Assembly: GCA_022571365.1 (NCBI GenBank)
Contig: JACZXZ010000001.1
Location: forward strand, 39,534 to 103,533
Origin: Pseudomonadota bacterium
GTDB taxonomy: Bacteria; Pseudomonadota; Alphaproteobacteria; G022571365
Direction of reading: 5' to 3'
Length of the DNA stretch: 64,000 nt
A model generated the notes under the pieces. It searched no databases. It was not told where the DNA came from and was given only the letters and a program-made list of their open reading frames with translations. This document shows positions 55,968 through 64,000 of this stretch, piece by piece. Positions within the stretch are counted from its first letter, which is position 1. Each line of letters starts with the position of its first letter. The position numbers and the translations under genes were made by a program.

Positions 55968-57386
55968 GTGAGAGCTGGAACGAGAATCATGATCGGAAAG
56001 GTCAATCGTAAAGCGCGTTCCAGGCAGGGCGGCGGCACTGCCTTCATTGCTTGTGCGATCGCGGCGATTCTATTTGCGGCCACGCCGGCCCACTCGGCAA
56101 CGGAAGACGTCACCTACACGCCCGACGTCAGCTTCACGCTGCTAACCGGCATCGCAGAGGGCAAGCTAGTCTATATAGGTCGGGGCGGTGAAATCGACGG
56201 GATCGTCAATCCGACCTTGCGGGTTCGTGAAGACGCCGTGGTGCAGATTACATTGATCAACGGCGAGGGCGCGGAGCACGACATCGTATTTCCCGATTTC
56301 AAGGCGGCTTCCGAGCGGATCGTCGCCCCAGGCGCGAGCAGTACGATCGTGTTCCGCGTCGGCAGCGCGGGATCGTACGTATATTTCTGCGCCGTGCCCG
56401 GCCACCGTGAGGCGGGCATGGAAGGAAATATGGTGGTTGAGGAGGCCAAGGCCGAAAAAGCCCCTGAGGCCATCAGCGTCGTTCGCGCCCCAACCGATCT
56501 CCCTCCGCCGATTGGGGATCGCCCTCCCACCACGGTGCGATACGAGCTGGAGACCGTGGAGATGGAGGCCCGGCTGATGGACGGGACGACGTACACCTAC
56601 TGGACGTTCAACCGCACCGTCCCTGGCCCGTTCCTACGCGTCCGCGTCGGCGATACGGTCGAGGTGAGATTGAAGAATGACCCGGACAGCATGATGATCC
56701 ACTCGATCGATCTTCACGCCGTCAACGGCCCTGGTGGCGGTGCGACCCTCACGCAGGTGTGGCCGGGCGAAGAGAGGGTCTTCACCTTCACGGCCCTGAA
56801 CCCGGGCCTTTACGTTTATCACTGCGCGACGCCGATGGTAGCTCACCACATCGCGAACGGCATGTATGGTCTGATCCTGGTCGAGCCCGAGGGCGGTCTG
56901 GCGCCCGTCGACCGCGAGTTCTACGTCATGCAGGGCGAGATATACACCGAAGCCGCGTTCGCCATGCACGGCCACCAGGAATTCAGCGTCGAAAAGCTGC
57001 TCGACGAAAGCCCTGAGTATTTCGTTTTTAACGGGTCGGTCGGGGCGCTCACCGAGGCGCATCCGTTGCGCGCCGAAGTCGGCGACATCGTACGCATCTT
57101 CTTTGGGGTCGGTGGGCCTAATTTCACCTCGTCCTTCCACTTGATCGGCGAGATTTTCGACCGGGTCTACGAATGGGGAGGCCTCCAGTCTCCTCCTGCC
57201 AGCGGGGTGTCGACGATATCGGTGCCACCGGGAGGTGCCGCGATGGTCGAATTCAAGCTCGACGTGCCCGGAAGGTACCTCCTGGTCGACCACGCGCTCT
57301 CCCGTTTGGAACGCGGTCTTGTCGGCTATCTCCAGGCGGATGGGCGTTTGGACCCTGCGATTTACCACCAGGGACCCGCGCAATAG
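55968..57386 (+). CDS. nirK: Copper-containing nitrite reductase NirK with additional N-terminal cupredoxin domain
   Basis: N-domain type-1 Cu ligands EHDIVF...FCAVPGHREAGM; NirK motifs HSIDLHAVN, YVYHCATPMVAHHIANGM, ALTEAHPL, SSFHLIGEIFD. Confidence 0.92.
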   Translation: MRAGTRIMIGKVNRKARSRQGGGTAFIACAIAAILFAATPAHSATEDVTYTPDVSFTLLTGIAEGKLVYIGRGGEIDGIVNPTLRVREDAVVQITLINGEGAEHDIVFPDFKAASERIVAPGASSTIVFRVGSAGSYVYFCAVPGHREAGMEGNMVVEEAKAEKAPEAISVVRAPTDLPPPIGDRPPTTVRYELETVEMEARLMDGTTYTYWTFNRTVPGPFLRVRVGDTVEVRLKNDPDSMMIHSIDLHAVNGPGGGATLTQVWPGEERVFTFTALNPGLYVYHCATPMVAHHIANGMYGLILVEPEGGLAPVDREFYVMQGEIYTEAAFAMHGHQEFSVEKLLDESPEYFVFNGSVGALTEAHPLRAEVGDIVRIFFGVGGPNFTSSFHLIGEIFDRVYEWGGLQSPPASGVSTISVPPGGAAMVEFKLDVPGRYLLVDHALSRLERGLVGYLQADGRLDPAIYHQGPAQ

Positions 57387-57502
57387 CAGCGGCCGAAGGC
57401 AAGCGGACCTTGGTCAACACACCGCCTTCGGGGCCGCGTTTCTGCCTCCTTCCACCCATCGCTGTCCAACTCGCCATGGGGAAAGCGGCGAGGCCGTCAT
57501 GC
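57312..57502 (+). repeat. Duplicated segment copy A (3' end of nirK plus downstream)
   Basis: gtcggctatctccaggcggatgg...cagcggccgaag...gtcaacacaccgccttcggggccgcg... aligns to 60432-60622 at offset about 3120. Confidence 0.92.
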
Positions 57503-57561
57503 GCCCCGTCTCGAGGCAGCCACAATCGAACTCAGGCCCCGGGGGTGCGGAGGGCTCACAC

Positions 57562-58143
57562 CTAGAAGCGAATGCCGTAGCGAATGCCCAGGGTGTCTTG
57601 GCCGTGATTTCGGTCGCACAGGTCGGCGTTGGAGATATGGTCGAGCATGAGCGAGATGCTGTGGCGCGCGCCAACAATCACACCCACCGAAATCGATTCC
57701 CGAAACAGAAGACGGCAACCAAGATCGTTTCTGCCCGCCGTATTCGAATTGCGCTTGCCATTGTGCACCGTTCCGCCGAACGTTAGCTCCGCGAAAAAGC
57801 TCTCGTAGATGTCGGCGGTCCAGCTGAGTCCAAAGTACAATTGGCTGGTGTTGCCGCTGGTGTTGGCGGACACGCCGAGGTGAGGGCGCGGGGAGAACAC
57901 GAAACTCAGGAATTCGGGTGACGTAAACAGGACCTCGGCGTTGATGTCGGCCCCGCCCTCGGTATGCGAGGTGATCAGCCCGGCATCGTGATAGAGGACT
58001 CCGCCTCGGGCCTCCGACAAGATTCCAGCCAAGCCCGGATTGTCGGGAGCATGGATAGCCGCGTCGGCCAGGGCCTGACGCGGTTGAGGCAGGACAGCCA
58101 TCAACAGGCCCACTAGGGCCAATATATATCGGAAAAATGGCAT
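57562..58143 (-). CDS. Acyloxyacyl hydrolase/lipid A deacylase (PagL-like) outer-membrane beta-barrel
   Basis: Signal peptide; GARHSISLMLDHISNADLCDRNHGQDTLGIRYGIRF with His-x-Ser-Asn motif and terminal Phe. Confidence 0.82.
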   Translation of the reverse strand: MPFFRYILALVGLLMAVLPQPRQALADAAIHAPDNPGLAGILSEARGGVLYHDAGLITSHTEGGADINAEVLFTSPEFLSFVFSPRPHLGVSANTSGNTSQLYFGLSWTADIYESFFAELTFGGTVHNGKRNSNTAGRNDLGCRLLFRESISVGVIVGARHSISLMLDHISNADLCDRNHGQDTLGIRYGIRF

Positions 58144-58410
58144 TCTTGTCCCCCCTTTGGTATTGGCAAGTATAGCTGCACAATTGTCGGCATCACAAGC
58201 TCAGATTTCGCTTGACCTTGTTCGAATTGAATGATTCGCGTGTCAAAATACAGATCGAGCAGGCGGCGAATGACAATTCTAAATGACAATTCCACTAGGG
58301 CGGGAAGCCCAGCTTCACGGTTCCGACCGCCGCCATGGCCGCTTCCGATTGCGACGGAGACGAGGGCCCGCTCGCCGCAAGGAATGTTATGATCCGGGAT
58401 TTCCCAGATG

Positions 58411-58537
58411 ATTCCTCCCACCCATCGCGGTCCAACTCGCCATGGGGGAAGCGTCGCATCCGCCATGTATGTTTTGCTATAAGGAAGCCATGGCGCGGCG
58501 GCTTTCACGATTCCTCGCCGTTCTTGCGCTGCCGGAC
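58411..58537 (+). repeat. Duplicated segment copy C, with decayed lipoprotein signal-peptide start
   Basis: ttcctcccacccatcgcggtccaactcgccatg...gttttgctataaggaagcc...cggcggctttcacgattcctcgccgttcttgcgctg aligns to 60565-60690. Confidence 0.92.
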
Positions 58538-58612
58538 TCGTCCCAAGACGCTGCTCGTGCTATGTTTGTTGATAACCAGCGGGAGTCGTCTGGGAAATCT
58601 GGGATAGAATAG
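58490..58612 (+). pseudogene. Truncated paralogue of the 60648-60956 lipoprotein (signal peptide only, then divergent)
   Basis: MARRLSRFLAVLALPDSSQD... versus MRRLSGFLAVLALTGLAAGACS. Confidence 0.65.
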
Positions 58613-58634
58613 GGAGACGCGGGAGCTCTCGGGG

Positions 58635-60434
58635 ATGGCTAGCATTTCGGCGCGGCGAAAGTTTCTCCTGGTCCTGATCAAGCCGTCGCACTACGACGAC
58701 GATGGCTACGTGATCCAGTGGTGGAAGGCCTGGATCCCGTCGAATTCCCTTGCCGCGCTCTATGGTCTCGCGCTCGATATGATCGAGCGCAAAGTCTTCG
58801 GCGACGAGATCGAGATCGTCCTGGAGGCTTACGACGAGATGAACACCCTGATCCCCTTCCGGAAGCTCCTCCGCCTGTTCCGTAACAACGACAACTTCGG
58901 GCTGGTGTGCCTGACCGGCGTGCAGTCGAACCAGTTTCCGCGCGCCATGGACATCGCACGCCGGTTCCGCGAGGCCGGCGTGCCGGTGGCGGTGGGCGGC
59001 TTCCATGTCTCCGGCTGCCTGGCCATGCTGGACGAATTGCCCCCCGATCTGAAGCAAGCCCAGGAAATGGGAATCAGCTTCTTTGCGGGCGAAGCGGAGG
59101 AGCGCCTGGAGGATTTCCTGCGCGACGCCATCACGGGACGCCTCGAGCCGGTCTACAACTACCTGAACGACCTGCCGGGGTTGGAGGGCCAGGTCGTTCC
59201 CTTCCTGCCCGAGCGGCTCCTGCGCGGCTACGACGGCATCATCTCCAGCTTCGACGCCGGGCGCGGCTGTCCCTTCCAGTGCAGCTTCTGCACCATCATC
59301 AACGTCCAGGGCCGCAAGTCACGCTATCGCTCGGCCGACGATATCGAGCGCATCATTCGGGCCAATGCCGCCCAGGGCGTGACCAAGTACTTCATCACCG
59401 ACGACAATTTTGCCCGCAACCGGAACTGGGAGGCGATTTTCGACCGCATGATCGAACTGCGGGAAGAGGAGGGCATCGGCATCCATTTCCTGATTCAGGT
59501 CGATACGCTCTGTCACAAGATCCCGAATTTCGTGGAAAAGGCCGCGCGCGCCGGATGTACGCACGCCTTTATCGGCCTCGAGAACATCGATCCCGAGAAC
59601 CTGCTGGCGGCCAAGAAGAAGCAGAACAAGATCACCGAGTACCGGCGCATGTTCCAGGATTGGCGCGCGGCGGGGGTCATGACCTATGCCGGCTATATCA
59701 TCGGCTTCCCGGTCGATACGCCCGAATCCCTGGCCCGGCACATGGAGATCATCAAAAAGGAGCTCCCGGTCGATATCATCGAGTTCACCATCCTCACGCC
59801 GCTGCCGGGTTCGGAGGACCACAAGAACCTCCACGACCAGGGCGTCCCGATGGATGCGGACATGAACCGCTACGACCTGGAGCACCCGACCACGGACCAC
59901 CCCCTGATGAGCCGTGAGACCCTGCAGAACTTCTACCGCCAAATCTGGGACCTCTACTACACGGACGAGCACGTGGAAACGCTGATGCGCCGGGCCATGG
60001 GCTACGGCATCAAGCCGGTGCGCGTCTGGCAGAACGTTCTCGAGGTCTATGGAGTCATGCGCTTCGAAGTGTTGCATCCGCAACAGGGCGGCTTCTTCCG
60101 CCGCAAGGCGCGGACCCAGCGGCGCCCTGGATACCCCATCGAATCTCCACTTGTTTTCTACCCGAAGCGCGTCTGGCAGACCCTGGCGACCTATATCCCC
60201 TGGGGCGTTTACGCCTGGAAGCTCCATCGCATGCGCAAGCGCATCCAGAAGGACGAAACGGCCCGGACTTACAGGGACTTTTCCATGACTCCGGTGGAGG
60301 ACGCGGAGCACGAGGCGCTGGAAATGTTCGAGTTGAACGAGGCGACCAAAGCGATGGTGGCCAAGGCCCAGGCCGAGGTGGCCGCCCGCGAGGCGCACAA
60401 GATCCGGACTGCCCCGGCCGCGGCGGCGGAGTGA
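58635..60434 (+). CDS. B12-binding-type radical SAM protein
   Basis: CPFQCSFC (CxxxCxxC), RYRSADDIERIIRANAAQGVTKYFITDDNFARN, N-terminal cobalamin-like Rossmann region. Confidence 0.9.
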   Translation: MASISARRKFLLVLIKPSHYDDDGYVIQWWKAWIPSNSLAALYGLALDMIERKVFGDEIEIVLEAYDEMNTLIPFRKLLRLFRNNDNFGLVCLTGVQSNQFPRAMDIARRFREAGVPVAVGGFHVSGCLAMLDELPPDLKQAQEMGISFFAGEAEERLEDFLRDAITGRLEPVYNYLNDLPGLEGQVVPFLPERLLRGYDGIISSFDAGRGCPFQCSFCTIINVQGRKSRYRSADDIERIIRANAAQGVTKYFITDDNFARNRNWEAIFDRMIELREEEGIGIHFLIQVDTLCHKIPNFVEKAARAGCTHAFIGLENIDPENLLAAKKKQNKITEYRRMFQDWRAAGVMTYAGYIIGFPVDTPESLARHMEIIKKELPVDIIEFTILTPLPGSEDHKNLHDQGVPMDADMNRYDLEHPTTDHPLMSRETLQNFYRQIWDLYYTDEHVETLMRRAMGYGIKPVRVWQNVLEVYGVMRFEVLHPQQGGFFRRKARTQRRPGYPIESPLVFYPKRVWQTLATYIPWGVYAWKLHRMRKRIQKDETARTYRDFSMTPVEDAEHEALEMFELNEATKAMVAKAQAEVAAREAHKIRTAPAAAAE

Positions 60435-60690
60435 CGCCGTCTCGTCGGCTATCTCCAGGCGGATGGCCGTTTAGACCCTGCGATTTACCACCAGGGACCC
60501 GCGCAATAGCAGCGGCCGAAGCAGCGGACCTTGGTCAACACACCGCCTTCGGGGCCGCGCCCCCACTTCCTCCCACCCGTCGCTGTCCAACTCGCCATGA
60601 GGAAAGCGTCAAGACCGTCATGTGCGTTTTGCTATAAGGGAGCCATTATGCGGCGGCTTTCAGGATTCCTCGCCGTTCTTGCGCTGACGG
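60432..60690 (+). repeat. Duplicated segment copy B (nirK tail remnant fused to lipoprotein head)
   Basis: Reads RLVGYLQADGRLDPAIYHQGPAQ* (NirK C-terminus) then continues into the lipoprotein start. Confidence 0.92.
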
Positions 60691-60956
60691 GCTTGGCGGC
60701 AGGCGCCTGTTCCCTGCGCCCGTTCCCGACATCCTCGCCAACAGCGCTTGAGAAAGCGCTTCAGGACTCGCCCGCGGCGCCCATTTCGGTTTGCTACAGC
60801 AAGGCGACGACCACCCCGGAAGAGATCATCAAGGCCGTCACCAAGAGTTGTGCGGGGCCCGACGCGCGTCTGGTCTTCTATGGCCAGGACGGCCTACCCA
60901 ACGAATGCCCGCTCCTCCAACCGGCCCGGGCGACGTTCCTGTGCGTCGCGCAATAA
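60648..60956 (+). CDS. Small putative lipoprotein
   Basis: MRRLSGFLAVLALTGLAAGACSLRPF lipobox-like AGAC; 102 aa. Confidence 0.75.
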   Translation: MRRLSGFLAVLALTGLAAGACSLRPFPTSSPTALEKALQDSPAAPISVCYSKATTTPEEIIKAVTKSCAGPDARLVFYGQDGLPNECPLLQPARATFLCVAQ

Positions 60957-63402: not shown

Positions 63403-63876
63403 ATGAAAACCTATTCGGCCAAAGCCTCAGAGCTGGACAAGAAGTGGTATCTGGTCGACGCCGACGGCGTGGTGCTGGGTCGGCTCGCCGCGGTCATCGC
63501 CAGCCGGCTGCGCGGCAAGCACAAGCCGACCTACACGCCGCACATGGATTGCGGCGACCTTATCATCGTCATCAATGCCGAGAAGGTGCACCTGACCGGC
63601 AACAAGCGCAAGGACAAGCTGTTCTACTGGCATACCGGATATCCGGGGGGCATCAAAGAGCGCACCATGGCCCAGATTCTCGACGGCAAGCACCCCGAAC
63701 GAGTCGTCATCAAGGCGGTTGAGCGGATGATCCCGCGCGGGCCGTTGGGGCGCCGGCAGATGGAGCACTTGAACGTCTATTGCGGGCCGAGTCACCCCCA
63801 TGCGGGGCAGCGGCCGGAGATCCTCGATATCGCCGCGATGAATCCGAAGAACAAAAGGGACAGAAGGAGCCGTTGA
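63403..63876 (+). CDS. rplM: 50S ribosomal protein L13
   Basis: [55 protein letters not shown]. Confidence 0.97.
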
Positions 63877-63878
63877 CC

Positions 63879-64000
63879 ATGGCCGAGAAGGATACGGCAA
63901 CCCCGGCCGAGAAGGACGCGGCAACCCCGGCCGAGAAGGACGCGGCGACCCCGGCCGAGAAGGACGCGGCAACCTCGGCCGAGAAGGACGCGGCAACCCC
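63879..64000 (+). CDS. rpsI: Probable 30S ribosomal protein S9 with repetitive N-terminal extension (3' truncated by window edge)
   Basis: ATG right after rplM; reads MAEKDTATPAEKDAATPAEKDAATPAEKDAATSAEKDAATP; identity inferred from rplM-rpsI synteny, S9 core not in window. Confidence 0.6.
   Translation, partial: MAEKDTATPAEKDAATPAEKDAATPAEKDAATSAEKDAAT
63897..64000 (+). repeat. 24-bp coding tandem repeat, 4.3 copies visible
   Basis: gcaaccccggccgagaaggacgcg at 63897, 63921, 63945, 63969, 63993 (truncated). Confidence 0.95.

What the first reader, a model, noticed from the sequence alone, without database searches (positions are those of the whole stretch)
57312..60690. Three interleaved diverged copies of a nirK-tail/lipoprotein-head segment
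Copy A (57312-57502) is the real nirK 3' end plus downstream DNA. Copy B (60432-60690) begins directly after the radical-SAM stop, still encodes the NirK C-terminus RLVGYLQADGRLDPAIYHQGPAQ* and runs into the lipoprotein start. Copy C (58411-58537) overlaps the end of A and the head of B. The simplest reading is that nirK was once followed directly by the lipoprotein gene, and tandem duplication plus insertion or deletion placed the pagL-like and radical-SAM genes between them.
Basis: seen in the sequence. Interest (0 to 1): 0.65.

Follow-up and report, generated by a model that had tools for sequence, protein, structure and literature searches.

The report
Scrambled gene junction around mobile-element ends
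Downstream of a copper nitrite reductase gene, a stretch of DNA occurs in three diverged pieces because a block of other genes was inserted with duplication of its borders, and the middle piece lies between two ends of a small mobile-element-like repeat; it is a neat fossil of genome rearrangement rather than a new system.

Summary
A (57311-57504) matches B (60434-60625) at 90%; C (58412-58538) matches B (60567-60693) at 86%; A and C overlap by 55 bp at 85%. No other copy exists in the genome. B links a nirK 3' tail, the intergenic region and a complete lipoprotein gene, so an ancestral nirK-lipoprotein order is well supported.

These are the only family matches in the 64 kb window (about 26 ends genome-wide; five pairs 210-324 bp apart, this one included). 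C is therefore probably not a plain third tandem copy. The anatomy reads best as a 2.9-kb block (pagL, MITE-like element holding C, radical SAM gene) inserted between nirK and the lipoprotein gene with about 194 bp duplicated at its borders. Tandem duplication followed by two insertions is not excluded.

No genome of the same order is held and reads are unavailable, so the empty site and assembly could not be tested. The event class is known: rearrangement linked to mobile-element ends. Interest is modest. Capture of a host 5' gene fragment by a bacterial MITE-like element is the most novel surviving reading.

The parts
55989..57386 (+). nirK, copper nitrite reductase with an N-terminal cupredoxin-like domain; intact parent of copy A
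   Evidence: TIGR02376 353 bits, cut-off 296; Pfam cupredoxin and multicopper oxidase domains
57311..57504 (+). Copy A: native nirK 3' end plus the first part of the old nirK-lipoprotein intergenic region
   Evidence: 89.7% identical to 60434-60625 over 194 columns
57505..60433 (.). Inserted block: pagL, MITE-like element holding C, radical SAM gene; bounded by copies A and B
   Evidence: Limits set by the repeat borders; that it entered as one block is inference
57562..58143 (-). PagL-like lipid A deacylase gene
   Evidence: PF09411 63.5 bits
58390..58420 (+). Left arm of the MITE-like element (first 31 positions of the end family), outer end facing pagL
   Evidence: nhmmer E 2.3e-6 with a model built without the window; R1 hit E 2.3e-5 in the whole genome
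58412..58538 (+). Copy C: 3' half of the old intergenic region plus a truncated, decayed lipoprotein gene head
   Evidence: 85.8% identical to 60567-60693
58535..58607 (-). Right arm of the MITE-like element (71 of 74 positions), outer end facing the radical SAM start codon 28 bp away
   Evidence: nhmmer E 1.2e-10; independent BLAST match to contig 58 at 76% over 76 bp
58635..60434 (+). Radical SAM protein gene, uncharacterised, 599 aa; 64% identical paralogue on contig 86
   Evidence: PF04055 65 bits; paralogue
60434..60706 (+). Copy B: nirK tail, whole intergenic region and lipoprotein head
   Evidence: Matches to A and C; only three copies in the genome
60648..60956 (+). Intact small lipoprotein gene (102 aa), distant homologues in 30 other genomes of the class
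   Evidence: ORF; homologues at 26-50% identity

Best explanation
Ancestrally nirK was followed directly by the lipoprotein gene. A block of about 2.9 kb (pagL on the minus strand, a MITE-like repeat element, the radical SAM gene on the plus strand) came to lie between them, with about 194 bp of nirK tail plus intergenic DNA duplicated at its two borders (A and B). Such a border duplication is what a single crossover of an incoming circle that carried the same segment would leave, or a replicative repair event. Copy C is a second, separate duplication: a 115-127 bp piece of intergenic DNA plus lipoprotein head that fills the interior of the MITE-like element between pagL and the radical SAM gene, probably copied in at a short shared sequence (TTCCTCCCA occurs in both the element end and the host DNA). 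Shown: the repeats, their borders, the element arms and their orientation, the intact flanking genes. Inferred: the order of events, the single-block entry, the crossover and the copy-in step. A and B could still recombine and remove the block.
For: Repeat borders and identities. Only three copies in the genome. Element ends at both borders of C: E 2e-6 and 1e-10, no other window hit better than E 2.5 and no comparable hit on the reversed window. The seed motif occurs 13 times in the genome against 0 for its reversed control. About 26 family ends in 2.3 Mb, giving a rough chance of about 1e-7 for both borders of C. Four other copies are also bounded by a pair of outward-facing ends, 252-324 bp apart, so a 210-bp pair around C fits the family. 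A, B and C are about equally distant in their overlap (6, 8 and 9 differences in 55), so C is not a recent copy of either neighbour. A keeps the nirK hairpin, B has a 2-bp deletion in it, consistent with B being the relic.
Against: No empty-site relative could be found, because no held genome belongs to the same order. Target-site duplications are not recognisable at the C-bearing element. No DDE_Tnp_1 transposase was found in the genome, though other transposase families were not searched. In G007, a class-level relative with 29 ends, no pairs were seen, so the family is not always two-ended. The element search was seeded from the window motif, which biases the first 17 positions. GC3 of pagL (0.73) and radical SAM (0.86) does not mark them as foreign.
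Confidence: 0.5

Rival explanations
1. One reading: a tandem duplication of the nirK tail-lipoprotein head unit came first; pagL then entered the first intergenic copy and the radical SAM gene the junction between the units, with loss of the first lipoprotein gene. A plus C is then the first unit and B the second.
For: A and C together span the whole unit, and B repeats it in full. The order A-C-B is what this model predicts. The three copies are about equally diverged.
Against: A and C overlap by 55 bp, so the pagL insertion needs its own duplication. Two ends of one repeat family in inverted orientation would have to land independently on the two borders of C, unless the element itself drove both insertions.
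Confidence: 0.28
2. The element ends and C form a transposed unit: a MITE-like element that had taken up the intergenic region and lipoprotein head elsewhere moved to the pagL-radical SAM gap.
For: Arms face outward with C inside, as in a transposable unit. The span of 218 bp fits the family.
Against: There is no second copy of the C-bearing element in the genome and no target-site duplication; landing 2 kb from its source by chance is unlikely.
Confidence: 0.12
3. Assembly chimera: variants of one locus from several strains were joined in a metagenome assembly.
For: The genome is in 116 contigs and its contig ends at the window end; no read data are at hand.
Against: The copies differ by 10-17% and each has its own borders and element arms; collapsed or chimeric joins usually sit on near-identical repeats. 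The block carries intact genes.
Confidence: 0.07
4. The repeats are kept for a function, such as a shared regulatory or RNA element of the three genes.
For: A GC-rich hairpin lies after the nirK stop in A; C puts the lipoprotein upstream region in front of the radical SAM gene in the same orientation.
Against: Hairpin energies are not unusual against shuffles (z -1.6 and -0.4). No promoter-like or terminator-like site in A, B or C. C shares no sequence with the 5' part of A.
Confidence: 0.03

Closest known systems
Bacterial MITEs and Tn3-derived TIMEs (PMC4133298)
   Same: Small, dispersed, no transposase gene, inverted ends; TIMEs are reported to mobilise neighbouring DNA and to form mosaic elements with foreign DNA between their ends.
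   Different: Here the ends are about 22 bp and diverged, most copies show only one recognisable end, movement is not shown, and the sequence is a different family. TIME internal DNA was taken up by composite transposition; here only a 115-127 bp host piece lies inside.
Mobile insertion cassettes (named in PMC4133298)
   Same: Passenger DNA between inverted ends without a transposase gene.
   Different: Here the passenger is a decayed gene fragment, not an intact gene.
Single-crossover (Campbell-type) integration with direct-repeat borders (own knowledge)
   Same: Inserted block flanked by direct repeats that contain the host junction.
   Different: No plasmid or phage gene remains in the block, and the repeats are 10% diverged.

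Membership tests
MITE (small non-autonomous inverted-repeat element) | Short element (about 30-300 bp), multicopy in the genome | tested here: met
   About 26 ends at E below 0.02 in 2.3 Mb; paired copies 210-324 bp
MITE (small non-autonomous inverted-repeat element) | Terminal inverted repeats | tested here: inconclusive
   Five outward-facing pairs in the own genome including the window's; most copies have one recognisable end, and none of 18 stretches in G007 has a pair
MITE (small non-autonomous inverted-repeat element) | Target-site duplication | tested here: inconclusive
   Outer flanks tend to T-N-A; one of five pairs (L187) has matching flanks, the window pair does not (sequences)
MITE (small non-autonomous inverted-repeat element) | No transposase inside; partner transposase in the genome or its relatives | tested here: inconclusive
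   No ORF of a transposase seen inside; PF01609 absent from the genome; other families not searched
Tandem duplication of the nirK-lipoprotein unit | Whole unit repeated head to tail | tested here: inconclusive
   A plus C tile one unit and B is the other, but A and C overlap by 55 bp and C is bounded by element ends
Copper nitrite reductase NirK | Match above the curated TIGR02376 cut-off | tested here: met
   353.4 bits against 296.3

The most novel reading that the evidence does not exclude
A bacterial MITE-like element captured a host 5' gene fragment (intergenic region plus signal-peptide start of a lipoprotein gene) and holds it 100 bp in front of a radical SAM gene in the same orientation, a bacterial counterpart of the gene-fragment capture known from plant Pack-type elements.
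Probability: 0.2. Interest if true: 0.45.

Novelty: new member of a known kind. Interest (0 to 1): 0.25.

Why it matters
It is a readable record of how genes came between two former neighbours, with duplicated borders and element ends still visible. If the capture reading holds, small transposase-less elements in bacteria can pick up host gene starts and place them before other genes. If not, it remains an ordinary rearrangement, useful mainly to warn that a nirK tail after the radical SAM gene is a relic and not a second nirK.

Tried and rejected
Repeat family as the source of A/B/C: rejected, only three copies genome-wide. Empty-site relatives: none held in the order; 80 nirK loci of other species lack the lipoprotein, pagL and radical SAM genes at E 1e-3, a relaxed search found nothing convincing downstream of nirK, and lipoprotein homologues in the class are not next to nirK. 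Known RNA family for the element: none; consensus fold negligible. IS4/IS5-type transposase as partner: none found. Second dispersed family as the origin of the intergenic region: best window hits fall in A and B but at E 0.2-0.5, so not claimed. Foreign codon usage of the block: not seen. Extension of A, B, C beyond their borders: not significant.

Full report
Observation. Self-comparison confirms three diverged direct repeats. A (57311-57504) matches B (60434-60625) at 89.7%. C (58412-58551, reliable to about 58538) matches B (60567-60706) at 83-86%. A and C share 55 bp at 85.5%. Per segment, A and B differ at 4 of 75 bases in the nirK coding part and 13 of 103 in the later intergenic part; C and B differ at 12 of 78 upstream of the lipoprotein start and 6 of 49 in its head. 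The B segment has no further strong match in the 2.3-Mb genome.

Genes. nirK passes the curated copper nitrite reductase cut-off; the minus-strand gene is PagL-like; the 599-aa gene is a radical SAM protein below every NCBIfam cut-off, with a 64% paralogue on contig 86; the 102-aa lipoprotein has no Pfam or NCBIfam match but has distant homologues in 30 other genomes of the class. The nirK tail in B starts at the last base of the radical SAM stop codon and is in frame with that gene. The radical SAM C-terminus resembles that of its paralogue, so the gene does not look cut short by B.

What bounds C. The repeat search showed a 24-bp inverted repeat at 58392-58415 and 58582-58605. Its core motif with up to two mismatches occurs 13 times in the genome and its reversed control 0 times. 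The other occurrences are ends of a dispersed family. A profile from 15 ends that excluded the window finds exactly two places in the 64-kb window: 58390-58420 (plus, 31 positions, E 2.3e-6) and 58605-58535 (minus, 71 positions, E 1.2e-10); the next hit has E 2.5 and the reversed window gives nothing comparable. A sequence model finds about 26 ends below E 0.02 in the genome. Five pairs face outward 210-324 bp apart, the window pair included. A rough estimate for both borders of C falling within 20 bp of correctly oriented ends is 1e-7; the family was seeded from the window motif, so the first 17 positions are favoured, but the right arm also agrees over the 45 positions beyond them.

The family elsewhere. 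In 57 other genomes searched it appears in one class-level relative, G007, with 29 matches; 18 fetched stretches there show no pairs. It has no Rfam match and no folding signal. No DDE_Tnp_1 transposase is in the own genome. It is called MITE-like here, not a proven MITE: inverted ends are met in part, target duplications are mostly unrecognisable, movement is untested.

Reading. B is the only place where nirK tail, intergenic region and full lipoprotein gene are joined, so that order is ancestral. The block 57505-60433 sits between A and B, which repeat 194 bp; this is the border structure of a single-crossover integration or of a replicative repair event. C is inside the element between the divergently oriented pagL and radical SAM genes. 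The left junction has a shared TTCCTCCCA between element consensus and host DNA, which suggests a copy-in at short homology. The three copies are nearly equidistant (6, 8, 9 differences in 55), so the order of events cannot be read from divergence. Tandem duplication first, with two later insertions, stays possible but must accept two independent element ends at the borders of C and an extra 55-bp duplication.

Limits. No genome of the same order is held, so the simple order was not seen in a relative. 80 nirK loci of other species lack the neighbours. Assembly error cannot be excluded without reads, though 10-17% divergence between copies argues against it. No regulatory role is supported: no promoter or terminator match in the copies, hairpins not unusual.

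Comparison. Transposase-less elements that carry or mobilise foreign DNA between inverted ends are known in bacteria (TIMEs, MITEs, mobile insertion cassettes; PMC4133298). This case differs in family, in decay and in holding only a host gene fragment. It is filed as a new member of a known kind, with modest interest.

Noticed in passing
L140:1496-2830 (own genome, contig 58): A copy of the element family is interrupted by a unit of about 1.16 kb with its own inverted ends (GGTAGTGCCTCAGTTT / AAACTGAGATACTACC) and a direct repeat CCTAAACT, and this unit contains an intact-looking NAD-binding oxidoreductase gene (1677-2564, minus): a second transposase-less family with a passenger gene.
   Followed up: partly
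G007 (29 matches), for example L193, L196, L198: The same end family is abundant in one distant class-level relative and absent from 56 others; in L196 and L193 the contig stops about 180-215 bp inside the element, which hints at near-identical copies there.
   Followed up: partly
own genome, e.g. L137, L144, L152, L157, L162 and window 58607: The outer end of the element often points at a gene start 30-120 bp away; this orientation bias was not tested statistically.
   Followed up: no
window 60432-60509: The nirK tail in B is in frame with the radical SAM gene; only the TGA stop separates them, so readthrough would add 24 NirK residues. Probably chance.
   Followed up: partly
window 63862-64000: Two 67-bp copies at 87% at the very end of the window, which is also the end of contig 42; the assembly probably stopped in a tandem repeat.
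   Followed up: no
G000:C86:45148-46917: 64% identical paralogue of the radical SAM gene; several class relatives also hold two or three copies of this uncharacterised family.
   Followed up: no
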